This document shows positions 37,272-51,985 of a stretch of 64,000 nt of DNA, one piece after another. Each line of letters starts with the position of its first letter. Within the stretch, counting starts at the first letter, position 1. Location: NCBI RefSeq assembly GCF_022865125.1, contig NZ_CP094828.1:2597219-2661218 (forward strand), read 5' to 3'. A model generated the notes under the pieces. That model saw only the letters and a list, made by a program, of their open reading frames with translations. It did no database searches and was not told the origin of the DNA. Source of the DNA: Acuticoccus sp. I52.16.1 (lineage in GTDB: Bacteria; Pseudomonadota; Alphaproteobacteria; Rhizobiales; Amorphaceae). Both the position numbers and the translations under genes were made by a program.

Positions 37272-37573
37272 TTCCGGCCCCCGCGCGCGGCGGCACGATC
37301 CCGACGGATCGCGTTCCTCCTGCGGCAGGACAGGTCGCATCCGTTGGAAGGGGACACCGGTGCCGGATCGAGTGGCAAGCCCGGCGAAAGTATAGAATCT
37401 GCGACGTCCGTCGGATGTTGCAGATAATCTCGGCCGATTCCGCCGATTGTTGTTGGCCAGCGATGTCCTGGGCGCTCAAGCGTACCAGTTATTGAGCGCG
37501 AGCCGCTACAGACTGTCCGCGGTCTTCGTAATTCTTCACGCTCGTATCCGTGGGCTTGTGTGAGGGATGGGAC
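37272..37573 (+). promoter_or_regulatory. Upstream control region of the large repeat protein gene
   Basis: About 300 non-coding bases, AT-richer than their surroundings from 37385 to 37560. It contains two inverted repeats: ATCTGC (37397-37402) with GCAGAT (37420-37425), and GCGCTCAA (37472-37479) with TTGAGCGC (37492-37499). TATAGAAT at 37391-37398 could be a -10 element. GAGG eight bases before 37574 is the ribosome site. A regulatory role for the repeats is inferred from position. Confidence 0.5.
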
Positions 37574-40500
37574 ATGGCGCAGTCGAACGATCAATCGGGG
37601 TCACCGCTGGAGTCGAAGCTCTATGAGACGATCGACGCGTTCGATCCCGCAAACGCCGTCGCCGGCGAGACCAACAACGTCTTCGCCGACCCCGACCTGA
37701 CCGAGACCGCGAACCCCGCCGAAGCCGGCCAGGCGATCCGACAGGAGTTTTCGTCGACAACGGTCACCGGCGTCGCCTCGGACGCGGCCGAGACGGTGGC
37801 CGATCCGTCCGTCGATCTGGAGCGGACCCGGACCGGCGAGCAACGCCCGGCGGCCGCCGCCGGGTCCGAGCGCATCGCCGACCTCGACACCGTATCCGTC
37901 GACCCTGCCGACTTCGCCGCGATCGACAGCCCGGCCGTTGCCGCCGGCGCGGGGGCGGTCGCCGGGCGGGCCGGTGGTGCCGCCGGTGCGGCAGCGGCGC
38001 CGCAGACCGTGGTGGTGGACGTCGCCGCCGATCCCGACGCGCCCGACGCCACCTCGTCCACCCCGCTCGACGCGTCCGACGTCGGAGCTCCCGGCGATCC
38101 GCTCGCCGAACCGGACGGCACCGAGCCGGCCGGCGAGTCGGTCCGCACCGACGAGCCCGGCGCGCTCGAGACACCCGAGATCGCCCCGCTCGGCGTCCCT
38201 GCCGACACGCTCGCCACAGTCACGCCGACGCCCGGCGCCGCGTTCCCCGGTGCCGCCACGCCGCAGGGAACGCCCGGCGCGCCTTCGGTCACCGGCGCAT
38301 CCGACCCCGCCGCCGAGCCTGCCGACACCCCGTCCGCCGACATGACGCCCGTCGACACGACGCCCGCCGATGTGACGGCTGTCGACGTGACGCCCGGCGA
38401 CGTCCCCGGCAGCACGGACACCGACCCCACCCCCGAGGAGCCCGCCGACGATCTCGCCGACGAGCCCGACACCCCCACGCCCGACACCACCGACGTCGGG
38501 CTCCCGACGCTCGATGACCTGCTCACCCCCCAAGACCCGCTCACCCCCCAAGACCCGCTCACCGAGGTCGACATCCCGACCGACACCCTCACCACGCCGG
38601 AAATCGCCCTCCCCTCGATCGACACCCCTTCCGTCGACGTCTCCGTCAACGGCACCCCGACCATCGACGTCCCCATTCTCGAGGTCCCCAATCTCGACAC
38701 CCTGGACGTCGATGTTCCGGCGGCCGAAGTCCCGACGCTCGAAGTCCCGACGCTCGACGTCCCGGCAGGCGACGTCCCGGCAGTCGACGTCCCGATCGTT
38801 GATGTGCCCACCATAGAGCTCGAGGTCGAACTCGATGCCGGTATCCCGGACATCGAGCTCCCCACCGTCGACCCGGTCACCGAGGTCCAGACGCCGACCC
38901 CCGACCCGATCAAGCCCCAGGAGGTCCCGCTCGAAGCCGGCGCGTCCCTCGATGCCGCCGAAATCCTCCTCGGCCTGGTCACCGAAACCCTCGACGACCC
39001 AGCCCCCTCCTTAGCCGCCCTCCCGCCACTCGGCACAGAAGACCCGGAGGAAGGCGACACCGACATGACGCTCGACGTCGACGCCGACCTGCCGTTGGTC
39101 GATGCGGTCGCGGTGGATGCCGAGGTCCCGCTGGACCCGGTCGAGGCGCTGGTAGGCGACATCGACGTGGATATCGGCGCTGACCTCGGGGGCGATCCGA
39201 CGGAAGCCGCGAGCGCGATCGATCCCGAGGTGCCGGGCGATCCGGTTGCTGCTCCTTTGCCACTCGGCGGTGAGAGTTCGGCGGAAGGCGACACAGACGT
39301 CGCACTCGACGTCGACGCCGACCTGCCGTTGGTCGATGCGATTGCGGTGGATGCGGAAATGCCGCTGGACCCGGTCGAGGCGCTGGTGGGCGACATCGAC
39401 GTGGAGATCGGCGCCGACCTCTCGGTCGACCCGGCGGAAGCCGTGGGCGTGATCGATCCCGAGGCGCCTGGCGATCCGGCGATCGCGCTCCCGCCGCTCG
39501 GCGCGGAGGACTCGTCGGAAGGCGACACCGACGTGGTGCTGGACGTCGACGCCGACCTGCCGTTGGTCGAGGCGGCGACGGTGGATGCCGAGGTGCCGCT
39601 GGACCCGGTCGAGGCGCTGGTAGGGGACATCGACGTGGAGATCGGCGCCGACCTCTCGGTCGACCCGGCGGAAGCCGTGGGCGCGCTCGGTCCCGAGGTG
39701 CCGGGTGACCCGGCGATCGCCCCCCCGCCGCTCGGCGCGGAGGACGCGTCGGAAGGCGACACAGACGTGGTGCTGGACGTCGACGCCGACCTGCCGTTGG
39801 TCGATGCGGCGACGGTGGATGCCGAGGTGCCGCTGGACCCGGTCGAGGCGCTGGTAGGCGACATCGACGTGGAGATCGGCGCCGACCTCTCGGTCGACCC
39901 GACGGACGCCGTGGGCGCGATCGATCCCGAGGTGCCGGTCGACCCGGCGATCGCCCTCCCGCCGCTCGGCGCGGAGGACACGTCGGAAGGCGACACAGAC
40001 GTCGCACTCGACGTCGACGCCGACCTGCCGTTGGTCGAGGCGGTTGCAGTGGATGCCGAAGTGCCGCTGGACCCGGTCGAGGCGCTGGTAGGCGACATCG
40101 ACGTGGAGATCGGCGCCGACCTCGGGGTCGACCCGGCGGAAGCCGTGGGCGCGATCGATCCCGAGGCGCCTGGCGAACCGGCGATCGCCCTCCCGCCGCT
40201 CGGCGCGGAGGACTCGTCGGAAGGCGACATCGACGTGGTGCTGGACGTCGACGCCGACCTCCCGTTGGTCGATGCGGTTGCAGTGGATGCCGAAGTGCCG
40301 CTGGACCCGGTCGAGGCGCTGGTAGGCGGCATCGACGTGGAAATCGGCGCCGGCCTCGCGGTCGAGCCGACGGAAGCCGTGAGCGCACTCGATCCCGAGG
40401 TGCCGGGCAATCCGGCAATGGCCCTCCCGCAACTCGGCGCGGAGGACCCGTCGGAAGGCGACACCGACGTGGTGCTGGACGTCGACGCCGACCTCCCGTT

Positions 40501-41686
40501 GGTCGAGGCGGTTGCGGTGGATGCCGAGGTGCCGCTGGACCCGGTCGAGGCGCTTGTGGGCGACATCGACGTGGAGATCGGCGCCGACCTCTCGGTCGAC
40601 CCGACGGACGCCGTGGGCGCGCTCGATCCCGAGGTGGGCGATCCGGCGATCGCCCTTCCGCAACTCGGCGCGGAGGACGCGTCGGAAGGTGACACCGACG
40701 TGGTGCTGGACGTCGACGCCGACCTGCCGTTGGACGATGCGGCGACGGTCGATGCCGAAGTGCCGCTGGACCCGGTCGAGGCGCTGGTGGGCGACATCGA
40801 CGTTGAGATCGGCGCTGACCTCGCGGTCGACCCTGTGGAAGCCGTGAGCGCGCTCGATCCCGAGGTGCCGGTCGACCCGGCGATTGCCTCCCCGCCGCTC
40901 GGCGCGGAGGACTCGCCGGAAGGCGACACAGACGTGGTGCTGGACGTCGACGCCGACCTGCCGTTGGTCGAGGCGGTGACGGTGGATGCCGAGGTGCCGC
41001 TGGACCCGGTCGAGGCGCTGGTGGGGGACATCGATCTGGACGTCGATGCGGATCTCGGCCTTCAGTTCGATGAGGGCGTCGCCGAGGTGGATGCAGCGGC
41101 CGATGAGGATCCGGCCATCGCGCTGCCGGAGGGTGACCCGGCTCACGCGCTCCCGGACGGCGATCCGGCTGACGTGCTCCCGGCGGGCGATGGATCCGAC
41201 GGGGCGGCGGCCGACGAGGCGGCGGAGGACCATGACCTCGTGATCGATCTCGGGGTGGAGGTGCCTGTGGTCGACGAGGTCCAGGCCGGGGTGGACGTGA
41301 CGCTCGACCCGGTCGAGGCCGTCGTCGGGGACGTCGACGTCGCGGTCGAGCTGGACCTCTCGGAAGCGGGCGCCGCCGTCGAGGGGGACGCCGCGCTGGC
41401 CCTGCTCGACGGTCTCGACGCCGAGCTCGTCGCCGCGATCTTCCCGGATGGGCCGGTCGACGACCCCCTCGATCCCCTGGGCGCCGGTGACCATGCCGAC
41501 CCCGGTAGCGCCGAGACCTCGCTCAACGACCTGCTCTCCGACCCGCTCGGCGCCGGCGACGTCGACGGTACGCCGCTCGATGGCGGTGCCTTGCTCGAGG
41601 CCAGCCTCGATCTGGACACGGCGGTGAGCGAGGACGCTGGCCTGGACCTGCTGGGTGACAAGCCTTGGGGGGGGCTCGGGTTCTAA
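37574..41686 (+). CDS. Giant acidic repeat protein, predicted type I secretion cargo
   Basis: A 1370-residue protein I do not recognise as a known family. Residues 1 to about 320 are Ala/Pro/Asp/Thr-rich, disordered-looking and without a signal peptide. About residues 315-430 hold short motifs: PLTPQD copies, then many VPxxDVP-type pentads. Residues 483 to about 1154 are nearly identical 78-residue repeats, each with GAEDxSEGDTDVVLDVDADL, PLDPVEALVGDIDVEIGADL and DPEVPGDPAIA segments. The C-terminus ends DKPWGGLGF. The protein has many Asp and Glu and hardly any Cys, and no GGxGxDxxx RTX motifs. The next three genes encode type I secretion parts, so it is probably exported, perhaps as a Ca2+-binding surface or matrix protein (inference). 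Confidence 0.85.
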   Translation: MAQSNDQSGSPLESKLYETIDAFDPANAVAGETNNVFADPDLTETANPAEAGQAIRQEFSSTTVTGVASDAAETVADPSVDLERTRTGEQRPAAAAGSERIADLDTVSVDPADFAAIDSPAVAAGAGAVAGRAGGAAGAAAAPQTVVVDVAADPDAPDATSSTPLDASDVGAPGDPLAEPDGTEPAGESVRTDEPGALETPEIAPLGVPADTLATVTPTPGAAFPGAATPQGTPGAPSVTGASDPAAEPADTPSADMTPVDTTPADVTAVDVTPGDVPGSTDTDPTPEEPADDLADEPDTPTPDTTDVGLPTLDDLLTPQDPLTPQDPLTEVDIPTDTLTTPEIALPSIDTPSVDVSVNGTPTIDVPILEVPNLDTLDVDVPAAEVPTLEVPTLDVPAGDVPAVDVPIVDVPTIELEVELDAGIPDIELPTVDPVTEVQTPTPDPIKPQEVPLEAGASLDAAEILLGLVTETLDDPAPSLAALPPLGTEDPEEGDTDMTLDVDADLPLVDAVAVDAEVPLDPVEALVGDIDVDIGADLGGDPTEAASAIDPEVPGDPVAAPLPLGGESSAEGDTDVALDVDADLPLVDAIAVDAEMPLDPVEALVGDIDVEIGADLSVDPAEAVGVIDPEAPGDPAIALPPLGAEDSSEGDTDVVLDVDADLPLVEAATVDAEVPLDPVEALVGDIDVEIGADLSVDPAEAVGALGPEVPGDPAIAPPPLGAEDASEGDTDVVLDVDADLPLVDAATVDAEVPLDPVEALVGDIDVEIGADLSVDPTDAVGAIDPEVPVDPAIALPPLGAEDTSEGDTDVALDVDADLPLVEAVAVDAEVPLDPVEALVGDIDVEIGADLGVDPAEAVGAIDPEAPGEPAIALPPLGAEDSSEGDIDVVLDVDADLPLVDAVAVDAEVPLDPVEALVGGIDVEIGAGLAVEPTEAVSALDPEVPGNPAMALPQLGAEDPSEGDTDVVLDVDADLPLVEAVAVDAEVPLDPVEALVGDIDVEIGADLSVDPTDAVGALDPEVGDPAIALPQLGAEDASEGDTDVVLDVDADLPLDDAATVDAEVPLDPVEALVGDIDVEIGADLAVDPVEAVSALDPEVPVDPAIASPPLGAEDSPEGDTDVVLDVDADLPLVEAVTVDAEVPLDPVEALVGDIDLDVDADLGLQFDEGVAEVDAAADEDPAIALPEGDPAHALPDGDPADVLPAGDGSDGAAADEAAEDHDLVIDLGVEVPVVDEVQAGVDVTLDPVEAVVGDVDVAVELDLSEAGAAVEGDAALALLDGLDAELVAAIFPDGPVDDPLDPLGAGDHADPGSAETSLNDLLSDPLGAGDVDGTPLDGGALLEASLDLDTAVSEDAGLDLLGDKPWGGLGF
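38521..38565 (+). repeat. Short 18-base direct repeats encoding PLTPQD
   Basis: CTCACCCCCCAAGACCCG occurs twice in tandem (from 38521) and a third partial copy follows, encoding DPLTPQDPLTPQDPLTE within the N-terminal half of the giant repeat protein. Downstream, to about 38830, degenerate 15-base units encode repeated Val-Pro-x-x-(Asp/Glu)-Val pentads. Confidence 0.8.
39020..41037 (+). repeat. Tandem 234-base coding repeats (about 8.6 copies)
   Basis: Unit starts are at 39020, 39254, 39488, 39722, 39956, 40190, 40424, 40655 and 40889. All spacings are 234 bases except one of 231, where a single codon is missing (EVGDP in place of EVPGDP). The anchor CTGGACCCGGTCGAGGCGCT recurs at 39131, 39365, 39599, 39833, 40067, 40301, 40535, 40766 and 41000. 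High identity at the DNA level, not only in protein, implies recent duplication or ongoing homogenisation. A decayed further copy is visible near 41240-41400. Confidence 0.95.
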
Positions 41687-41695
41687 AAGGTATGC

Positions 41696-43381
41696 ATGTC
41701 GACCTTTGCGACCCCGAATTCGAGCGCCATCAGCAGGATCGAGCCGGCCATCCAGCTCGCCGTCCTGACGATGGCGCTCAACCTCATGGGCCTCGCCCTG
41801 CCGATCGCCGTGGCGCAGATCTTCGACCGGATCATCCCCAATCCGGGCACGTCGACCCTGTCGCTGATCGCGGTCGGCATCGTCGCGATCGGTGCCATGG
41901 ACGCGCTGCTGCGCTACGCCCGGGCGGCGATCCTGGCGCGCGCGGGGGCCAACTTCGCCGGCGCGATGACGCACAGGGTGCTCGCCCAGGTGCTCCTGGC
42001 GCGGCCCGGCGCGGCCGGCACCTCGCCCTCGCAGAGCCTCGAATACCTGTCCGCGATCGGGCAACTTAAAGAAAAGTACAATGGACAGGTGCTCGTCAGC
42101 CTCGTCGAGCTCCTGTTCCTGCCGATGATGGTGGCGGTGATCTTCTGGATCTCCACCACGGCCGGTGTCCTGGTGACGCTGGCGCTCGTCGTCTTCGCGC
42201 TGCGCACCTGGCAGGACGCGGTGCGCATGCGCGGCATCGGCGACCGCATCAAGACCGAGAGCGAGGTCCGCTACAACTTCCTGTTCAACATGCTGGGCGC
42301 GATGCAGGCGATCAAGTCGCTCGGCATCGAGGACATCATCCTGCGCCGTTACGAGGCACTGCACGGGACCCTCGCACGCGGCAACTACAGGCTGGCGCTG
42401 GTGACCGGGCGCCTGCTCAACAGCGGCTCGGTCGCCAGCCAGATGATGGTGGCGGGGGTCCTCGCCTTCGGGGCGCTGGGGGTCAGCCGGGGCACCATGA
42501 CGATGGGCAGCGTCTCCGCTCTCGTCATCATCGCCAGCCGCATCATGGTGCCGGTGCAGCGGGCGGTCTTCGTCTTCGTGCAGATGAAGAACATCGGCGC
42601 CGCGCGCAAGAAGATCGAGGGCGTGCTCGCCCGGCCGCTGATCGCCGCGCCCGACGAGACGATCGACATCAAGAACGAGGGGCGGCTCACGCTCGACGAT
42701 GTCGCCTTCGAGCGTGAAGGGAAGCCCCTCTTCGCCGGCGCGTCGCTCTCCATCGTGCCGGGCGAGGTGGTCGCGCTGTCGGGGCGCTCGGCCGCCGCCA
42801 GCACCGCGTTGTTGAAGCTCGTCGCCGGCATCGAGGTGCCGAGCGAGGGCGAGGTGCGGCTCAACGGCGTGCCGCCGACGCGCTATCCCCAATGGCGCCT
42901 CAACCGCGCGGTCGGCTACGTGCCCTCGTACGGGACGATGTTCCGCGGCACCATCCGCGACAACCTCACCCGGTTCGGCGAGGTCGACGACGACGCCGTC
43001 ATGGCGGTCGCGGCGATCATGGAAATCGACCACCTCATCAAAGAGTTGCCGCAGGGGCTCGACACCGAAGTGCTCGGCGGCGCGACGGAGACGATCCCGC
43101 CCGGCCTCGTCCAGCAGCTGACGCTGCTGCGTGCCCTGGCGACGCGCCCGCGCCTCATCCTGCTCGACAATGTCGACCGTGGGCTCGACCAGGCGGGCTA
43201 CGCCAAGCTCCACCGCTTCGTGGGCGCGGTGCACGGGCAGGCGTCGTTCATCATCGTATCGGACGACGCCAACCTGCTCAGCTACGCCAACAAGCGCTTC
43301 ACACTGGAAGGCGAGGGCCTGCGCCCGACGATGGGATTCGAGCAGACCGAGCGCGTCGCCTACCGGGACTTCAAGCTGTGA
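41696..43381 (+). CDS. Type I secretion ABC half-transporter with degenerate ATPase domain
   Basis: A 561-residue half-transporter: six membrane segments in residues 20-300 and an ATPase domain in 330-545, with no N-terminal peptidase-like domain. Every catalytic motif is altered. Walker A is GRSAAAST (363-370), lacking the Lys; the Q-loop position is Ser411 (YVPSYG); the signature is IPPGLVQQ (467-474); Walker B is LILLDN with Asn492 in place of the catalytic Glu; and the H-loop is VSDD with no His. The fold seems intact (FRGTIRDNL is present), so this is a pseudo-ATPase rather than a broken gene. It starts nine bases after the repeat protein stop and overlaps the second half-transporter (GTGA). 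Confidence 0.88.
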   Translation: MSTFATPNSSAISRIEPAIQLAVLTMALNLMGLALPIAVAQIFDRIIPNPGTSTLSLIAVGIVAIGAMDALLRYARAAILARAGANFAGAMTHRVLAQVLLARPGAAGTSPSQSLEYLSAIGQLKEKYNGQVLVSLVELLFLPMMVAVIFWISTTAGVLVTLALVVFALRTWQDAVRMRGIGDRIKTESEVRYNFLFNMLGAMQAIKSLGIEDIILRRYEALHGTLARGNYRLALVTGRLLNSGSVASQMMVAGVLAFGALGVSRGTMTMGSVSALVIIASRIMVPVQRAVFVFVQMKNIGAARKKIEGVLARPLIAAPDETIDIKNEGRLTLDDVAFEREGKPLFAGASLSIVPGEVVALSGRSAAASTALLKLVAGIEVPSEGEVRLNGVPPTRYPQWRLNRAVGYVPSYGTMFRGTIRDNLTRFGEVDDDAVMAVAAIMEIDHLIKELPQGLDTEVLGGATETIPPGLVQQLTLLRALATRPRLILLDNVDRGLDQAGYAKLHRFVGAVHGQASFIIVSDDANLLSYANKRFTLEGEGLRPTMGFEQTERVAYRDFKL

Positions 43382-45642
43382 GCGCGCTGGCCGTCGGGGT
43401 CGAGGCCGTCGCCGGGCGGCCGCCGGCGATCGCGCCGCCCGCTGCCGCGCCGCCGCCCCCGTCCCCGGCGCCGGACGACGTGGCGAGCGCCACTCCGCTG
43501 TCCGACCTGCAACGCTTCGAGCTGGCGCTGGACCGTCTCGTCGCCATGCTCGGCGCCAGCCGTGGCGAGGCGCGGCGCTCGGGACCGTTGCGCCTCCTGT
43601 GTGCCATGTGCCTCCTGACCGAGACGGACTTCCATGTCCGCCATCTCGCGGCCGCGCTCCCGGCCGAAGCGCGCGCATTGGACGCCGGCGACGTCGTCAC
43701 TGCGATGGCGAACCTCGGGTTCCATGCGACGCGGGCCCGCGGGCGCGGCGCGCATCTGCGGGCGGCGCGGCTGCCGGTCCTCTTCATCCCGCGGCGCGGC
43801 GCACCCATGGTGCTGTTCGCCTGCCCGGACACCGGTGCCCCGCGGATCCTGGGGGACGAGGGGCCGAGCGTGCCGGTCGGGCGTCTGGCCCGCGGCGAAA
43901 GCTGGTCGTTCGCCCGCAACGAGGAGCACCAGCTCGACAAGGTGCAGCGCACGCACACCGGCGACACCTGGTTTCGCGCCATGCTGGCGCTGTTCCCGCG
44001 GGCCGGCATCGCGCTCTTGATGTGCTCGTTCGCCGCCGCGGGCGCCGCGATCCTGCTGCCGCTCTTCACCATCCAGACCTACGCCCAGGTCATCAGCCTC
44101 GGCTCGGCCGAGCCGCTGCCGGCCTTCGTCGTCGGCATGTTGCTTGTGGTGGGGGTGGAGGCCATGCTGCTCACCCGCCGCAAGCGCATCCTCGCCTTCC
44201 TCGCCAATCGCATCGAGTATCTGATCGGCACGCTCTCGTTCGAGCGCATCCTCAAGATCCGCGCCTCGATCGCCGAGCGCGCCGCAGTGACCGACCAGGC
44301 GGCGCGGCTGCGCACGGTGGAGAACGTGCGCGACTTCGTCACCGGACCGGGTTTCGTGTCGATACTGGAGGCGCCGACGGCGCTGGCCTCGGTCGCGGTC
44401 ATGGGATTGCTCGCCGGCTGGGTCGCGGTGGTGCCGGTGTTGGCGATCGCGGCGCACCTCGTCGTCTTCATCCAGATGCGTCGGCGCGCGCGGGTCATGA
44501 CCAGCATCGCCGCCGACGAGTCGACCGAGATGCAGCGCATCACCATCGAGACGTTCGAGAAGCGGGACGCCATCCGCGAGGCCGGGCTGCAACACCTTTG
44601 GTCCGAGCGCATGGTCGATTCGGTGCGCCGCCAGCAGCGCGCCCAGGTGCGCCTCCGGATGACCGGTACGGCGGCCGAGGCGCTCTCCACCTTCGTGCTG
44701 ATGACCGGCGGGATCATGGTTCTCGTCGCCGGGGCGCACGCGGTCTGGGCCGGGGCCATCGGACCGGGCGGGCTCCTGGCGATCACCATCCTCGGCCTGC
44801 GCGCGCTGACGCCCTTCCACACGCTGTGCCTGTCGATCGGGCGGTTCGAGCAGCTGCGCAACTCCGTCCAGCAGATCAACCAGCTGATGGACATGGTGCC
44901 CGAGCGCGACCCCGACCGCGATTATGTGGAGCTGAAGTCGCTGCGCGGCGCGGTGAGCTTCCTCAACGCCGGCTTCCGGGCAAGTGACACGCGGCCCGTC
45001 TTCGTCGGCCTCGACATCGAGATCGAGCCGGGCGACATCGTGGCGATCACCGGAGCCAACGGGTCGGGCAAGTCCACCGTGCTGAAGCTGGTGATGGGTC
45101 TCGGCGACCTCTCGATCGGCGCGATCCGCATCGACGGGATCGACATGCGCCAGCTCGCGCTCGACGAGCTGCGCCGGCGCATCGCCTACGTGCCGCAGCA
45201 ACCGCGCCTCTTTCCGGGGACCCTGCGCGAGAACCTCCAGTTCGCGCGGCCGATGGCGACGGCCGAGAAGATGAAACGGGCGCTGCGCCAGACGGGGCTG
45301 CTGGAGGCGATCGCGCAGCTTCCCGGCGGACTCGACCAAGCCATCGGCCCCGAGGACATCGCCGGGCTGACGCCCGAGTTCGTGTTCAAGTTCGCGCTGG
45401 CGCAGGCGGTCCTGACCGAGCCGAGCCTGCTGCTGATCGACGAGATCCCCAACGCCCTGCTCGACGGGGCCGTCGGCCGCATCCTGAAGCGGCTCGTCGG
45501 CGAGAGCGGCAAGCGTACGACCGTGATCTTCGTGTCGCACCGGACCGACTACCTGGCGCTGGCCGAGCGTGTCGTCGCGCTGCGCTACGGCAAGGTTCCC
45601 GTGGTCTCGACGCCGGCCACCCTGCTCGCGAGGTTCGAATGA
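43378..45642 (+). CDS. Type I secretion ABC half-transporter with C39-like N-terminal domain
   Basis: A 754-residue half-transporter beginning at GTG inside the preceding stop. Residues 1-45 are Ala/Pro-rich; about 45-180 resemble a peptidase C39-like domain without a catalytic Cys/His pair, used in HlyB-type exporters to bind cargo; about 200-500 hold six membrane helices; 520-754 hold the ATPase. Walker A GANGSGKST (559-567), Q607, Walker B LLLIDE (684-689) and H721 are intact, but the signature is LTPEF (664-668) instead of LSGGQ. It probably forms a heterodimer with the pseudo-ATPase partner. ATGA overlap with the HlyD gene shows coupling. Confidence 0.87.
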   Translation: MSALAVGVEAVAGRPPAIAPPAAAPPPPSPAPDDVASATPLSDLQRFELALDRLVAMLGASRGEARRSGPLRLLCAMCLLTETDFHVRHLAAALPAEARALDAGDVVTAMANLGFHATRARGRGAHLRAARLPVLFIPRRGAPMVLFACPDTGAPRILGDEGPSVPVGRLARGESWSFARNEEHQLDKVQRTHTGDTWFRAMLALFPRAGIALLMCSFAAAGAAILLPLFTIQTYAQVISLGSAEPLPAFVVGMLLVVGVEAMLLTRRKRILAFLANRIEYLIGTLSFERILKIRASIAERAAVTDQAARLRTVENVRDFVTGPGFVSILEAPTALASVAVMGLLAGWVAVVPVLAIAAHLVVFIQMRRRARVMTSIAADESTEMQRITIETFEKRDAIREAGLQHLWSERMVDSVRRQQRAQVRLRMTGTAAEALSTFVLMTGGIMVLVAGAHAVWAGAIGPGGLLAITILGLRALTPFHTLCLSIGRFEQLRNSVQQINQLMDMVPERDPDRDYVELKSLRGAVSFLNAGFRASDTRPVFVGLDIEIEPGDIVAITGANGSGKSTVLKLVMGLGDLSIGAIRIDGIDMRQLALDELRRRIAYVPQQPRLFPGTLRENLQFARPMATAEKMKRALRQTGLLEAIAQLPGGLDQAIGPEDIAGLTPEFVFKFALAQAVLTEPSLLLIDEIPNALLDGAVGRILKRLVGESGKRTTVIFVSHRTDYLALAERVVALRYGKVPVVSTPATLLARFE

Positions 45643-46994
45643 AGCTCGTCCCCATCATCGGAGGCGCCCCCGAGCGGCGCGAACCCGAGCCGCCACGGCG
45701 GATCGACCCGCTGCGCCGGTTGACGATGCCCGTGCTCGTCGAGGAGGCGACCAGCGGGGCCTTCCTGCGGCGCACGGCGCTGACGATCGCCGCCGCCTTC
45801 ATCGCGCTCATCGTCTGGTCGGCGCTGGCGACGGTCCACGAGGTGTCCCGTGCGCAAGGCATGGTGGTGCCGGCCGGTTTCGAGCGCATCATCCAGCACT
45901 ACGAAGGCGGGATCGTCGCCGAGATCCTGGTCGAGGCCGGTCAGTCGGTCTACCAGGGCCAGCCGCTGTTCGTGCTCGACGATGCGGCCACCGCGGAGGA
46001 TCTCGCCGTCGCCTCCCGCCAGAGGGACTCCATTGCCGCCGAGATCGAGAGCCTGATGGCCCTCGCCGAGGACCGCGAGCCGGACTTCAGCCGCTTCGAC
46101 TCGCGCGTCGCCGCCAGCATGCGCGTCGCCCACACGTCGCAGCGCGACGCGTTGGACAAGGAGCACACGCTGATCGCCAGCCGCATCGAGCAGGCCCGCT
46201 CGATGCTGAAGAGCGTCGAGGCCCAGCTCGACGGTTACGAGGACGACCGCCGGTTCGCCGAGGAGAATTTCGCCCGCATCGATGCGCTGGTGAAGAAGGG
46301 CTTCTCCACGCGCGCTCTCCTCGCCGAGCGGCGCAAGGCGATCAGCGACGTGGAGAACGCCACCGCCGTCGCCGTCGAGAAGAAGCAGGCCGCGCGCGAG
46401 AAGCTGAACGAGGCGACCGGCAACCTCGCCGCCTTCCTCGCCCGCACCCGCGCCGACCGCGCCACGCGGATCCAGGAGTTGCAGACGACGCTGTCACGCA
46501 TGAGCGGCGACCTCAGCAAGCAGAAGCGCCGGCGCGACCGCCTCACCGTCAGTTCGCCGGTGCACGGCCTGGTGAAGTCTCTCGAGGTCACGACCATCGG
46601 CGGCGTGGTCAAGAGCGGGCAGCCGCTGGCGACGATCGTCCCGGTCGGCGAGGAGCTGACCGCCGAAACGCGCATCCCCGTCAGCGAGATCGGCTACGTG
46701 GCGATCGGCCTCTCCGCCCACGTGAAGGTCTCGGCATTCGATTTCACCCGCTTCGGCTGGATCGAGGGGCGGGTGTCCGACATCTCGCCCTCCTCCTTCG
46801 TCCAGGACGGGCAGGAGCCCTACTACAAGGTCCGCATCGCGCTCGACACCAACCATCTGCCGCAGGTGCCGACGGCGCGCATCGCCCCCGGCATGCAGGT
46901 CGATGCCGACATCATCACCGGCGACAAGACCGTCCTGGCCTACATCCTCAGCCCGATCTCGCGGGCCATGAAAACCGCCTTCGCGGAGAGGTGA
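45639..46994 (+). CDS. HlyD family type I secretion periplasmic adaptor
   Basis: A 451-residue adaptor: a short cytoplasmic N-terminus (about 45 residues), one membrane helix (about 47-65, LTIAAAFIALIVWSALA), a lipoyl half-motif QHYEGGIVAEILVEAGQSVYQGQPLFVLDD, a long coiled coil (about 125-305), the second lipoyl half VSSPVHGLVKSLEVTTIGGVVKSGQPLATIVP, and a beta-barrel ending in PGMQVDADIITGDKTVLAYILSPI, diagnostic of HlyD/PrtE adaptors. It bridges the inner-membrane ABC exporter to a TolC-like outer-membrane channel. No such channel is encoded here. Confidence 0.93.
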   Translation: MKLVPIIGGAPERREPEPPRRIDPLRRLTMPVLVEEATSGAFLRRTALTIAAAFIALIVWSALATVHEVSRAQGMVVPAGFERIIQHYEGGIVAEILVEAGQSVYQGQPLFVLDDAATAEDLAVASRQRDSIAAEIESLMALAEDREPDFSRFDSRVAASMRVAHTSQRDALDKEHTLIASRIEQARSMLKSVEAQLDGYEDDRRFAEENFARIDALVKKGFSTRALLAERRKAISDVENATAVAVEKKQAAREKLNEATGNLAAFLARTRADRATRIQELQTTLSRMSGDLSKQKRRRDRLTVSSPVHGLVKSLEVTTIGGVVKSGQPLATIVPVGEELTAETRIPVSEIGYVAIGLSAHVKVSAFDFTRFGWIEGRVSDISPSSFVQDGQEPYYKVRIALDTNHLPQVPTARIAPGMQVDADIITGDKTVLAYILSPISRAMKTAFAER

Positions 46995-46995
46995 G

Positions 46996-47949
46996 ATGAC
47001 CGCAGTGACGCACGCGTCCCCGTCACGCGCCGCCCGCGCCAGCGACCGCGCCACGGTGCTCCTCGTCGACGACGACCGCAGCGCCCTCCTGATGATGGAG
47101 GGACAGCTCGAGAATCTGGGCTACCAGGTGGTCACCGCGAGCAACGGCGGCGAAGCCTTCGCCCTGCTGCGCGAGAACCCCGCGGTCGCCGACATCGTGG
47201 TCACCGACCGGATGATGCCCGTGCTCGACGGCCTCGGCCTCACCCGCCGCCTCAAGCGCGAGCAGGCGACCAAGCACATTCCCATCGTCATCCTCACCGG
47301 CGCGCGCGACCCGGCAGACGTCAGCGCCGGCATCGAGGCGGGGGCGTTCTACTACCTCACCAAGCCCTCGTCGGCCGAGCTGATCGCCTCGGTCATCGGC
47401 TCGGCGATGGAGGAGGTGCGGCGGCAGAAGAAGCTGCGCGCGGACCTGCGGGGCCATCAGTCCGCCTTTCGCAACATGGAGGTAGTGCGCTTCCGCCTCA
47501 CCGGGCCGGCGGAGGTGGACTCGGTGGTGAGCATGCTCGCCAGCATGCAGGACGCGCCCGACCGCACCATCCAGGGCATCTACGAGCTGCTGCAGAACGC
47601 CATCGAGCACGGCGTGCTGCGCTTCGGCTTGGAGGCCAAGTCGCGGCTCCTGGCCGAAGGGCGGTGGCCGGAGGCGGTCGCCGAGCGGGCCCGTGACCCC
47701 GCCTACGCCGGCGGCTGGGCCCTGGCGACGGCCATGCGCCGGGACGACGGCGTCTACCTCAACGTCAAGGACAACGGGCCGGGGTTCAACTGGCGGCCCT
47801 ACCTCGCGACCGACCCCAGCCGCTCCGGCGCGGCCTGCGGCCGCGGTATCGCCCGCGCCGCCAACTTCGCATTCGACAAGCTCTACTACGACAAATCAGG
47901 AAACCAGGCTGTCGCTTTCGTGGCCAGCGCGCCGCGTGTGCAATGGTAG
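46996..47949 (+). CDS. Response regulator with C-terminal HATPase-like domain
   Basis: A 317-residue protein. Residues 18-140 form a receiver domain with the acidic pocket VDDD (25-27), phosphoacceptor Asp71 (VVTDRMMP), Thr in ILTGA and Lys in TKPSS. Residues about 160-317 have a histidine kinase/anti-sigma-factor type ATPase domain: YELLQNAIEHG as N-box, VKDNGPGFNW as G1 and CGRGIARA as G2. No phosphoacceptor His helix is present, so it is not an ordinary kinase; it resembles an RsbW-type switch under receiver control. It starts one base after the HlyD stop and precedes the hybrid kinase, its likely phosphodonor. Confidence 0.82.
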   Translation: MTAVTHASPSRAARASDRATVLLVDDDRSALLMMEGQLENLGYQVVTASNGGEAFALLRENPAVADIVVTDRMMPVLDGLGLTRRLKREQATKHIPIVILTGARDPADVSAGIEAGAFYYLTKPSSAELIASVIGSAMEEVRRQKKLRADLRGHQSAFRNMEVVRFRLTGPAEVDSVVSMLASMQDAPDRTIQGIYELLQNAIEHGVLRFGLEAKSRLLAEGRWPEAVAERARDPAYAGGWALATAMRRDDGVYLNVKDNGPGFNWRPYLATDPSRSGAACGRGIARAANFAFDKLYYDKSGNQAVAFVASAPRVQW

Positions 47950-47960
47950 AGGTTCATGGG

Positions 47961-50900
47961 ATGAATATCAGGAAACTAGGCTTCCGGAAATCGCTGCCGG
48001 TCATTACGCTTATTTCGATGTCCGTTTTGCTGGCGGCAATCCTCGGAAAATATACGCTCGATCTGGTCGAGACGACTCACGAGCGGTTCCGCGGTCAGAC
48101 CCGCGGCTACGAGCGCGCCATGCGCCAGCAGATCGACACCGGGATGGTTCGCCTCAAGGATGCCGCCGCGTTCGTCCTCGCGGGACGGGCCGACCAGGTC
48201 CACGACAAGCTGCGCCGCGCCAGCCGCCAATCCTCCAGCCTGACGCACCTCGGCTACTTCACGGTCGACGACCACATCGTGCGCTCCTTCATCGGCGACG
48301 GCGATCTCTTCGTCGACCTACGCGAGGGGGGCGAGTCGCTGACGCTCCTCGAGAACCGGCTGATGCAGCACATGGGTCTCGCCGTGTCGGTCAGCCCGAC
48401 GCAATGGCGCGACGTGATGCCGACGCTGCCGGAGAACCAGATCGTCCTGATGCAGGCGATGCCGATCAAGGACGGTGGGCATCTGGTGGTCTTCGTCGCC
48501 CTCGACATCGCCCGCATGGCGCGCGAGGCGGCGACGGGCCTCAGCCATCTCGACCTCGTCAGCGTCCACCTGGAGCCCGACGACGCCGCCGTCACGCTCG
48601 AGTTCGATCCCGAGCCGTCGTTCCTGTTCAAGCTGATGGGGGCCGAAGAGGCGGTCACCCACGTCAAGGTGACGCGCAACCTCGACGCGCAGATCATCCT
48701 GCGCGAGCACTTCGACGACTTGACGTCGCTGCTCTTCATGCTCGGCGGGTTGACGGCGGTGTTCGTCGCGGGGGGCGTGATGGTCGCCGCCTTCAACGGC
48801 ATGCAGCGTCGCGACTCGCGGGAGCTGACGGCGGCGCTGACGAAGGCGGAGACGGCCAACGAGGCGAAGTCGGTCTTCCTCGCCAACATGAGCCACGAGA
48901 TCCGCACCCCTCTGAACGGCGTGCTCGGCATGGCCGAGCTGTTGATGCGCACCGACATGACGCGGGACCAGCGCCGCTATGCCGAGCAGATCGTCGCCTC
49001 CGGCAATACGCTGCTGGCGCTGCTGAACGACGTGCTGGACCTGTCCAAGCTGGAGAGCGGGCAGCTCGCCGTCGACCCGATCCGCACCGGCCTCCCCGAA
49101 CTCGTCACCGACATCGTGCGCTTCTACAACGGCTCGGCGCAGCACAAGGGCCTGCCGCTCCTGATGGACCTCGACCCGCGCCTGCCGGAGTTCGTCGAGG
49201 CGGACCCGATCCGTATCCGGCAAATTCTCGGCAACCTCATCTCCAACGCGCTGAAGTTCACCAAGTCCGGCGAGGTCGTCGTGTCAGTGACGCTCGGCAA
49301 GCTCGACCCCGAGGCGAACCGCTGCGTGATCGAGTTCGCGGTCTCCGACACCGGCATCGGCATCGCCGAGGAGTCGATCGCCAAGCTGTTCTCTCGGTTC
49401 ACGCAGGCCGAGGACAGCACCACGCGGCTTTACGGCGGCACCGGTCTCGGCCTCAGCATCTCCAAGCAGATCTGCGAGCTGATGGGCGGCTCGATCGGTG
49501 TCACCAGCGAGCTCGGCAAAGGCTCGGTGTTTACCTTCGCGCTGCCGCTGACGGCCCTCGAGGGCCCGCGTATCCCGGACGGCAGCGGCCTGCGCGTGGC
49601 GATTCTGTCCTCGTCGGAGACGCTGATGCGCATCGTCGAAGTCGGCCTCGAGACCTACGGGACGGAGTGCCTGGCCTACGATGCGCGGCGCTCGGCGCTC
49701 GATCAGCTCGCCAAGGAGCACGCGCAGGCGCCGGTCGACGTCATCCTGTTCGACGAGGGCCGCAGCATCGAGCACACGATGGCGCTGCGGGCGCGGCTGC
49801 GGACCAACCCGCGGCTGACCGAGATTCCGCTGGTCATCCTGGCGGCGCAGGAGGCGTGCGCGTCCTACCCGGTGTTCGACGGGGTGCTGGTCAAGCCGTT
49901 CGACTGCCGCGTCCTGCTGGCGATGATCCACCGTCTGGCCGGAGGCGAGAGTGCGGAGGAGGCGGTCGTCACCAGCGAAGCCATGGTCGACAGCGCGTTG
50001 GCCAACGGACCGCGCTACAAGGGCCTCCAGGCGCTCCTGGTGGACGACAACACCGTGAACCTGATGTTCGGGTCGGAGGTCCTGGAGGATCTGGGCTTCG
50101 AGGTCTCGGAGGCCAACAACGGCCTGCGCGCGATCGACGTCGCCAAGAAGGGCGACTTCGACATCATCTTCATGGACTGCCAGATGCCGGTGATGGACGG
50201 CTACACGGCGACCGGGAAGATCCGCGCGTTGATGGAGGAAGGCGGGATCCGGCGCGTGCCGATCGTCGCCGTCACCGCCAACGCGCTCAAAGGGGACCGG
50301 GAGAGGTGCCTCGACGCCGGAATGGACCTCTTCCTGACGAAGCCGCTGAAGGTCGCCGAGCTGAAGGCGACGCTGTCCGGCCTGTCGCTGCGTCGCCGGC
50401 CGGCGAAGGCGGCGGCACAACACTCCCCCGAAGCCGCCCCCGCGCCCCAGAGGAAGGCCGCCCCCATGAGTGATCCGACGAGACGCGACACCGCACCCCA
50501 ACCGGCGCCGGCCGTCGCGCCCCAGACGCGCCCGGTCGTGGCCGAGGTGCAGCCCGCTGCGGCCCAGCCGGTGGTGCAGGCGCGGACGGTCGCCCAAGCC
50601 GCCCCCGTCGCCCAAGCCGCCCCCGTCGCCCAGGCCGCGCCCGTCGCCCAGGCCGCGCCCGTCGCCCAAGCGGCGATCCAGGCGGTGGCCCAAGGGGCGC
50701 CCGCCGCCGCACCGCAACGCGCGGCCGCGCCGCAGCCGGTCGCCGCCGCGCAGCCTGCACCGAGCGCCGCGCCGCCCGCCAGGCAGGCCCATCCGGCAAA
50801 CCGGGCGCACGCGGAGGCCAAGGCCGCCGCGCAGGCCAAGGCCGCCGCCCAAGCCGAGGCGCAAGCTGAGGCCAAGGCGCAGGCGGAGGCCGCTGCCGTG

Positions 50901-51494
50901 GCCAAGGCGGCCGAGCAGGCGGCCGCCGCCGCAAAGGCGCAGGAAGCCGCCCAGGCGAAGGCGATGGCGCAAGCCAAGGCCGCCGCACAAGCCAAGGCGG
51001 CCGCCCAGGCGAACGCCGCGGCCGCCCAGGCGAAGACCGCCGCCCTCCAGCCGCAACGCGCAGCCACGCCGGAGAGCCCGCCCGCGCCGCAACCGGCCCC
51101 CGCGCCGGCCCCCGCCGCGAAGGGCAAGGTCCCGCTGGTGGACGTCGCCGCCTTCAAGGCCACCCGCCAGTCGATGAAAAAATTCGACACGTTGCTCGAG
51201 TTCTATCGAACCGACACCGCCGAGTACCTCAAGACGATCCGCGAGGCGCTGGCGATGGGCAACATCGAGGACGCGGTGATGCCGGCCCACACCATCAAGA
51301 GTTCGAGCCGCATCGTCGGCGCGACGGGCCTCGGGACGCTGGCGGAGAGCTTCGAGGCGCGGGCGCGCTCCGGCGATGCCGCCAACCTCCAGGACCTCAA
51401 CAAGTTGCGCGTCCACATGGACCGCATCTTCGACCTGACCCTGCAGGCGATCGAAAAGCTGACCGCCGCCGACCGCACCTCCGACGCCGCCTGA
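47961..51494 (+). CDS. Hybrid sensor histidine kinase with two receiver domains, low-complexity linker and HPt
   Basis: A 1177-residue membrane kinase. Order: helix 1 (about 12-30), a periplasmic sensor of about 220 residues, helix 2 (about 256-276), HisKA with His312 in MSHEIRTPLNG, HATPase (ILGNLISNALKF, DTGIGI, GGTGLGLSIS), a degenerate receiver (about 540-660, VILFDEGRS without a normal Asp pocket), a full receiver with Asp739 (FMDCQMPVMDG), a linker at about 812-1054 made almost wholly of Ala, Gln, Lys, Pro and Val, and an HPt domain with His1110 (AHTIKSSSRIVG). The ATG at 47961 has GAGG eight bases upstream. It probably controls the secretion locus through the adjacent receiver-ATPase. 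Confidence 0.9.
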   Translation: MNIRKLGFRKSLPVITLISMSVLLAAILGKYTLDLVETTHERFRGQTRGYERAMRQQIDTGMVRLKDAAAFVLAGRADQVHDKLRRASRQSSSLTHLGYFTVDDHIVRSFIGDGDLFVDLREGGESLTLLENRLMQHMGLAVSVSPTQWRDVMPTLPENQIVLMQAMPIKDGGHLVVFVALDIARMAREAATGLSHLDLVSVHLEPDDAAVTLEFDPEPSFLFKLMGAEEAVTHVKVTRNLDAQIILREHFDDLTSLLFMLGGLTAVFVAGGVMVAAFNGMQRRDSRELTAALTKAETANEAKSVFLANMSHEIRTPLNGVLGMAELLMRTDMTRDQRRYAEQIVASGNTLLALLNDVLDLSKLESGQLAVDPIRTGLPELVTDIVRFYNGSAQHKGLPLLMDLDPRLPEFVEADPIRIRQILGNLISNALKFTKSGEVVVSVTLGKLDPEANRCVIEFAVSDTGIGIAEESIAKLFSRFTQAEDSTTRLYGGTGLGLSISKQICELMGGSIGVTSELGKGSVFTFALPLTALEGPRIPDGSGLRVAILSSSETLMRIVEVGLETYGTECLAYDARRSALDQLAKEHAQAPVDVILFDEGRSIEHTMALRARLRTNPRLTEIPLVILAAQEACASYPVFDGVLVKPFDCRVLLAMIHRLAGGESAEEAVVTSEAMVDSALANGPRYKGLQALLVDDNTVNLMFGSEVLEDLGFEVSEANNGLRAIDVAKKGDFDIIFMDCQMPVMDGYTATGKIRALMEEGGIRRVPIVAVTANALKGDRERCLDAGMDLFLTKPLKVAELKATLSGLSLRRRPAKAAAQHSPEAAPAPQRKAAPMSDPTRRDTAPQPAPAVAPQTRPVVAEVQPAAAQPVVQARTVAQAAPVAQAAPVAQAAPVAQAAPVAQAAIQAVAQGAPAAAPQRAAAPQPVAAAQPAPSAAPPARQAHPANRAHAEAKAAAQAKAAAQAEAQAEAKAQAEAAAVAKAAEQAAAAAKAQEAAQAKAMAQAKAAAQAKAAAQANAAAAQAKTAALQPQRAATPESPPAPQPAPAPAPAAKGKVPLVDVAAFKATRQSMKKFDTLLEFYRTDTAEYLKTIREALAMGNIEDAVMPAHTIKSSSRIVGATGLGTLAESFEARARSGDAANLQDLNKLRVHMDRIFDLTLQAIEKLTAADRTSDAA
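50588..50680 (+). repeat. 18-base minisatellite encoding AQAAPV repeats in the kinase linker
   Basis: Five near-identical 18-base units, each encoding Ala-Gln-Ala-Ala-Pro-Val, lie in the low-complexity linker of the hybrid kinase. The rest of the linker (to about 51110) is built of AKA, AQA and KAA triplets. Such tracts are prone to copy-number change by slippage. Confidence 0.8.
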
Positions 51495-51550
51495 GGCCCG
51501 GAGGCGCGACGCGGCCGGCCGGTGACGAACGGACCGGCCGCCAGCCGCGA

Positions 51551-51985
51551 TCAACCGAAGAAGCCGAAGAACAGCGACATCAGGTCGTCGATCGGCGAAC
51601 TCTCGGGCGCGACTTCGGTGGTCGCGGTCGCGTCGACCGTGTCGGCGACGTCGGCGATCACGGTCGCCTCGGTCGCCGCGGTGGCATCGACCTACGACAG
51701 GTCCACGTCGGCGCTCGCCTCCACCGCCACCCCGTCGCCGGTGACGTTGACCCCCACCGCCGCGTCGACGGCGCCCAGCGCGGAGACGTCGGCGTAGAGA
51801 TCGAAGCCGCTGCCGAAGGCGGTGGCCACCTCGGCGCTGCCGGCGGTCGAGGGAACCGTCGCCGTCTGGCGCGTCGCGGAGAGGCTCAGGAGCGAGCTGG
51901 TGTCGCTGCGAGCCAAGACGTTGCCTTGCCGGGTGATGGCAAGCGCGGCGTTGAGGGACAGTAGGTCTTGCGTGGCTCCGATCAT
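51551..51985 (-). pseudogene. Small Asp/Val/Ala-rich protein gene interrupted by an in-frame TAG, possible second secretion cargo
   Basis: Starting at ATG 51985, with GAGGAGAG about seven bases upstream, 97 codons run to a TAG at 51692-51694. The same frame continues uninterrupted for 47 further codons to TGA at 51551-51553, with the same composition (VADTVDATATTEVAPES), and ends LMSLFFGFFG. The whole 144-codon reading has an N-terminus MIGATQDLLSLNAALAI, no signal peptide, and an Ala/Val/Asp-rich middle (ADVSALGAVDAAVGVNV) like the giant repeat protein. Its hydrophobic Phe/Gly-rich end looks like a type I secretion signal. The TAG may be a mutation, a sequencing error or a true early stop. 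Confidence 0.65.

What the first reader, a model, noticed from the sequence alone, without database searches (positions are those of the whole stretch)
51551..51985. Small secretion-cargo-like gene split by one in-frame TAG
The frame from 51985 stops at TAG 51692-51694 but continues cleanly for 47 codons with the same Asp/Val/Ala/Thr composition and ends in LMSLFFGFFG. Continuation of frame, composition and a plausible C-terminal secretion signal say that the ancestral protein was 144 residues. A nonsense change at a single codon, a base-calling error or programmed readthrough are all possible.
Basis: seen in the sequence. Interest (0 to 1): 0.75.

Follow-up and report, generated by a model that had tools for sequence, protein, structure and literature searches.

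The report
Small orphan gene cut by TAG
A small gene without known relatives is interrupted by one stop codon although gene-like sequence runs on behind it; this is most likely an ordinary nonsense mutation or a base error, and nothing found here points to a special decoding mechanism.

Summary
On the minus strand an ATG frame at 51985 runs 97 codons to TAG 51692-51694 and then 46 more open codons to TGA 51551-51553. Openness alone is worth little (chance about 0.52). The codon signal behind the TAG is strong: about 39 bits, 0 of 20,000 shuffles as good. Of 273 stops in the window with 46 open codons on both sides, four look coding on both sides; the other three are borders to long downstream genes. 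So the two parts were most likely one gene.

The rest is only partly backed. No homologue was found, so ancestral length and conservation past the TAG cannot be tested. RF1 is present, no tRNA reading UAG was found, and the RNA near the stop is not unusually structured: programmed readthrough is unsupported. The gene lies beside a type I secretion locus but points the other way, and nothing like it was found in six related loci, so 'secretion cargo' is a guess.

Verdict: an interrupted orphan gene, by real mutation or base error. Low interest.

The parts
51692..51985 (-). ATG-to-TAG reading frame, 97 aa, acidic, no Lys/His/Cys/Trp; GAGGAG ribosome-binding-like sequence just upstream of the ATG
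51692..51694 (-). in-frame TAG that interrupts the coding-like frame
51551..51691 (-). in-frame continuation, 46 codons plus TGA, coding score about 39 bits, ends DDLMSLFFGFFG
51511..51541 (.). inverted repeat between the TGA 51551 and the convergent kinase gene's end at 51494; possible shared transcript end behind the second stop, but not more stable than shuffles (z -0.51)

Best explanation
This is a small, lineage-specific (orphan) protein-coding gene whose single frame of 97 + 46 codons is interrupted by one nonsense change to TAG that is really in the genome. Shown: the frame, the TAG and the coding signature on both sides. Inferred: release factor RF1 ends translation at the TAG, so the cell makes a 97-residue protein (or none that matters), and the last 46 codons, with the aromatic/glycine-rich end, are silent apart from trace leakage. 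The protein's role is not known; a small secreted or surface acidic protein is possible, but nothing here shows it.
For: Coding signal continues in frame directly behind the TAG: tail codons 1-10 score 7.5 bits, codons 11-46 32.2 bits, and the synonymous-choice signal alone 15.5 bits. Among 273 comparable stops in the window this is the only one that scores 15 bits or more on both sides without being a border to a long downstream gene. TAG is a normal terminator here: 5 of 37 chosen genes end in it, and prfA scores 472.1 bits against a cut-off of 423.25. Of 48 tRNA matches in the genome ARAGORN confirms 46, none with a CUA anticodon.
Against: No orthologue was found in the collections searched, so the intact length is inferred from codon statistics alone. 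No read data, so a base error cannot be excluded. The first 48 codons have a weak coding score (12-codon blocks 2.7, 3.3, 1.7, 1.3 bits), so the existence of the gene rests largely on its second half and on the tail. A GTG 10 codons behind the TAG, with GAGG upstream of it, could start a separate 36-codon frame.
Confidence: 0.52

Rival explanations
1. Base-calling or assembly error: the organism has a sense codon at 51692-51694 and makes the full-length protein.
For: One changed codon in an otherwise open frame is all that is seen, with no further stop in the tail. Published precedent: 28 of 73 resequenced interrupted coding sequences of Mycobacterium smegmatis were sequencing errors (PMC1852416; passages seen).
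Against: It is the only such case that the stop scan found in 64 kb (the scan does not see frameshifts). The assembly has six contigs, which does not look poor, but its technology and read depth are unknown.
Confidence: 0.22
2. Two genuine frames: a 97-residue protein that naturally ends at the TAG and a separate small frame from the GTG 10 codons further on (36 codons), possibly translated by re-initiation.
For: GTG with GAGG a few bases upstream; the 36 codons score 32.2 bits.
Against: The 10 codons between TAG and GTG also score as coding (7.5 bits) in the same frame; no relative of the tail was found.
Confidence: 0.09
3. Not a protein-coding gene on this strand: chance frame, or shadow of the antisense frame 51522-51797 (+), which covers the tail and about the last third of the 97 codons.
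For: No homologue; weak score of the first 48 codons; the antisense frame shares its third codon positions and scores 23.1 bits over the tail.
Against: The sense frame scores 16 bits more than the antisense frame over the tail, and all three antisense frames hold a stop over the 97-codon part; position-1 G+C exceeds position-2 G+C in the sense direction on both parts.
Confidence: 0.1
4. Programmed or regulated readthrough of the TAG, giving a short form and a long form with the aromatic C-terminus.
For: The tail keeps a full coding signature and ends in a distinctive motif. A survey argues that in-frame stops in bacterial genes are widespread and often not pseudogenes (PMC7918605; abstract and first part of the discussion read).
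Against: RF1 present; no CUA-anticodon tRNA found; no unusual structure around and behind the stop (z -1.08); no conserved TAG can be shown, since no orthologue was found. The same survey says that many such events are short-lived and assumes that the vast majority have no functional recoding.
Confidence: 0.04

Closest known systems
Interrupted coding sequences / nonsense pseudogenes of bacteria (PMC1852416, passages seen; PMC7918605, abstract and part of the discussion)
   Same: A coding frame broken by one in-frame stop with open, coding-like sequence behind it.
   Different: Such cases are usually recognised by comparison with related intact genes; here no relative was found, so only codon statistics show it.
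Stop-codon readthrough genes
   Same: Open, coding-like extension behind a stop.
   Different: No conserved stop could be shown, no suppressor tRNA and no stimulatory structure were found; RF1 is present.
Type I secretion substrates (ABC exporter / HlyD systems; PMC3034196, passages seen)
   Same: Acidic, Cys-free and Lys-free, lies beside a type I secretion locus, hydrophobic C-terminal end.
   Different: Convergent gene outside the operon, no GGxGxD repeats seen, not found in related loci, end differs from the large cargo of this locus.

Membership tests
Interrupted coding sequence (nonsense-disrupted gene) | coding signal in the same frame on both sides of one stop | tested here: met
Interrupted coding sequence (nonsense-disrupted gene) | intact orthologue with a sense codon at that place | tested here: inconclusive
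   no orthologue found in 8 genus, 10 family and 397 order genomes (each count includes the window's own genome), GTDB representatives, plasmids, phages or IMG/VR
Interrupted coding sequence (nonsense-disrupted gene) | stop confirmed in the reads | not testable with these tools
   no read data
Programmed stop-codon readthrough | stop and downstream frame conserved across species | tested here: inconclusive
   no orthologue found
Programmed stop-codon readthrough | suppressor tRNA for UAG, or loss of RF1 | tested here: not met
   48 tRNA matches, 46 confirmed by ARAGORN, none CUA; prfA over its cut-off. tRNAs that RF00005 misses, and pyrrolysine genes, were not looked for
Programmed stop-codon readthrough | stimulatory RNA structure behind the stop | tested here: not met
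   z -1.08; 31 of 200 shuffles fold as well
Type I secretion substrate | genetic linkage to ABC exporter and HlyD adaptor | tested here: inconclusive
   the locus 37550-51494 is adjacent but the small gene is convergent, and tblastn gives no hit at E<=1 in 152,550 bases (small overlaps included) of six related loci
Type I secretion substrate | Ca-binding GGxGxD (RTX) repeats | tested here: not met
   none by reading the translation; this would rule out RTX proteins only
Type I secretion substrate | functional uncleaved C-terminal secretion signal | not testable with these tools
   needs an export assay

The most novel reading that the evidence does not exclude
The TAG is a regulatory stop: a short cytoplasmic form ends at it, and occasional readthrough adds a 46-residue tail with an aromatic/glycine-rich end that sends the long form out through the neighbouring type I exporter.
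Probability: 0.02. Interest if true: 0.7.

Novelty: new member of a known kind. Interest (0 to 1): 0.13.

Why it matters
Mostly as an annotation point: a gene caller would record a 97-residue orphan and miss 46 codons that look just as coding. If the TAG were shown to be read in the cell it would be an unusual chromosomal case of amber readthrough that changes a C-terminus, but no evidence here favours that.

Tried and rejected
Homologue searches of the 97-residue part: own genome (itself and three matches at E 0.29-1.8), genus and family (best other match E 0.008), plasmids, GTDB representatives, IMG/VR, solved structures. Tail alone: 150 order genomes, 22 other matches listed at E<=1, best E 0.12. 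Full frame with X at the stop: 397 order genomes, 12 other matches at E<=0.01, best E 0.0016; phages; GTDB representatives. Pfam and NCBIfam gave nothing and PHROGs one match at E 0.28. I read the frames of 36 fetched weak matches on the matched strand: none has an FFGFFG-like end, none looks related, and by my own reading they include a LysR-like regulator, a short-chain dehydrogenase, an ABC ATPase and several copies of one HisG-like gene. Not read: L038, L042, three rows and one that got no locus. In some searches I had read the minus-strand matches on the wrong strand; one search replaces those readings.

Lead dropped: the G005 cargo contains SSPWDWLFGGF, which recalls the tail's SSPIDDLMSLFFGFFG. 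The six large cargoes seen end in GLGF, GLEL, SFYL, SFHL, THAM and MVGV, so a shared C-terminal motif was not upheld. A pattern scan for F/G-rich protein ends in the window, L014, L015 and L016 found the tail itself and one frame in L014 that looked like chance. BLASTP of the small protein against the window's large cargo: best E 0.83.

AlphaFold2 of the 97 residues alone: mean pLDDT 43.1, uninformative; no fold search was made. No sigma-70-type promoter found; one weak terminator-like site inside the tail. The hairpin behind the TGA is no more stable than shuffles.

Full report
Observation. The minus-strand frame starts at ATG 51985, behind a purine-rich GAGGAG sequence, runs 97 codons to TAG 51692-51694, and continues 46 open codons to TGA 51551-51553. 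The window lies in a 5.53-Mb, six-contig genome and has about 70% G+C.

Is the continuation more than chance? That 46 codons stay open means little: 0.52 by chance in a third-order Markov model. The codon signature does mean something. Position-specific G+C is alike before and after the TAG (0.68/0.55/0.92 and 0.63/0.50/0.91). With a codon model trained on 37 heuristically chosen genes of the window the tail scores 39.3 bits; real-gene stretches of that length have median 29.0 and 95th percentile 43.0 (269 stretches), and none of 2,580 wrong-frame stretches reaches it. With a slightly different gene set it scores 39.7, and 0 of 20,000 open shuffles reach that. After the stops of the 37 genes the frame stays open in 22, and 1 of 37 scores as high, because the next gene begins in the same frame. 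A scan of the stops in all frames found 273 with 46 open codons on both sides; 4 are at 15 bits or more on both, and the other three are borders to downstream frames of 420-1,061 codons with a start within 1-3 codons. By this scan, which does not see frameshifts, it is the only interrupted coding frame in the window. Caveats: the gene list is heuristic; the first 48 codons score weakly; the antisense frame shares third positions and scores 23.1 bits over the tail, though the antisense frames are all closed somewhere in the 97-codon part.

Relatives. None was found: own genome, 8 genus genomes, 10 family genomes, 397 order genomes, tail alone in 150 order genomes (these counts include the window's own genome), GTDB representatives by peptide patterns confirmed at E<=1e-3, plasmids, phages, IMG/VR, Pfam, NCBIfam, PHROGs, solved structures. 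36 of the weak matches were read and look like chance. The order genomes are a sample of a larger group, and the pattern scans miss distant relatives.

Decoding. TAG is an ordinary stop here: 5 of 37 chosen genes use it. RF1 (prfA) is present above its curated cut-off, 472.1 bits. Of 48 tRNA matches in the genome, ARAGORN confirms 46; none has a CUA anticodon; two weak matches (L113, L114) are not called as tRNAs. The RNA around and behind the TAG is not unusually structured (z -1.08). Pyrrolysine genes were not searched for. So nothing supports programmed readthrough, while background leakage cannot be excluded.

Surroundings and the 'cargo' idea. Next door lies a type I secretion locus: a 1,378-residue acidic repeat protein (37550-41686), two ABC exporters (41696-43381 and one ending at 45642), an HlyD-type adaptor (45639-46994; TIGR01843, 325.3 bits against a cut-off of 208.65), a response regulator (46996-47949) and a hybrid kinase with an Hpt domain (47943-51494). 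The small gene is convergent to the kinase, with 56 bases between its TGA and the kinase's end, or 197 if it ends at the TAG. Besides the window, one search listed 32 places with a related exporter; I fetched six of them: the second copy in the same genome, G005, G007, G170, G143 and, more distantly, G006. tblastn of the small protein, whole or in two parts, finds nothing at E<=1 in 152,550 bases of these loci, small overlaps included. The large cargoes of the window and five of these loci end in GLGF, GLEL, SFYL, SFHL, THAM or MVGV, not in FFGFFG. The acidic, Lys-, His-, Cys- and Trp-free composition would suit a secreted protein but proves nothing. The structure prediction is uninformative.

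Interpretation. The simplest account is one orphan gene broken by one nonsense change, with RF1 termination at 97 residues. A base error is the main rival: resequencing showed 28 of 73 interrupted M. smegmatis coding sequences to be sequencing errors (PMC1852416, passages seen). A survey of in-frame stops holds that they are widespread in bacteria and that many are not pseudogenes, but also that most are short-lived, and it assumes that the vast majority of readthrough events are not functional recoding (PMC7918605, abstract and first part of the discussion read). Both readings are ordinary. Three paper searches were made; I make no claim about what is absent from print.

Noticed in passing
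37550-51494: Type I secretion locus with two ABC exporter genes, HlyD adaptor, its own response regulator and hybrid kinase-Hpt, and a very acidic repeat cargo without Pfam or NCBIfam match; cargoes of relatives (L014/L045, L046, L048) share an LESKLYE-like N-terminus.
   Followed up: partly
L016 and L051 (own genome, C1 about 4447000-4470000): A second copy of the same secretion and kinase locus in the same genome, with another acidic cargo; a protein with RTX-like glycine/aspartate repeats is encoded nearby.
   Followed up: partly
L014 1-6371 and L045 1-9727: In genome G007 the kinase does not follow the response regulator but appears to stand divergently in front of the cargo gene, which seems to run over two contigs.
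   Followed up: no
L067, L088 (G000:C6:14613-14951) and L066, L087 (G000:C1:1781857-1782195): A tRNA-Ile/tRNA-Ala pair occurs on the small contig C6 and on C1 with equal scores, which may mean an rRNA operon on C6.
   Followed up: no
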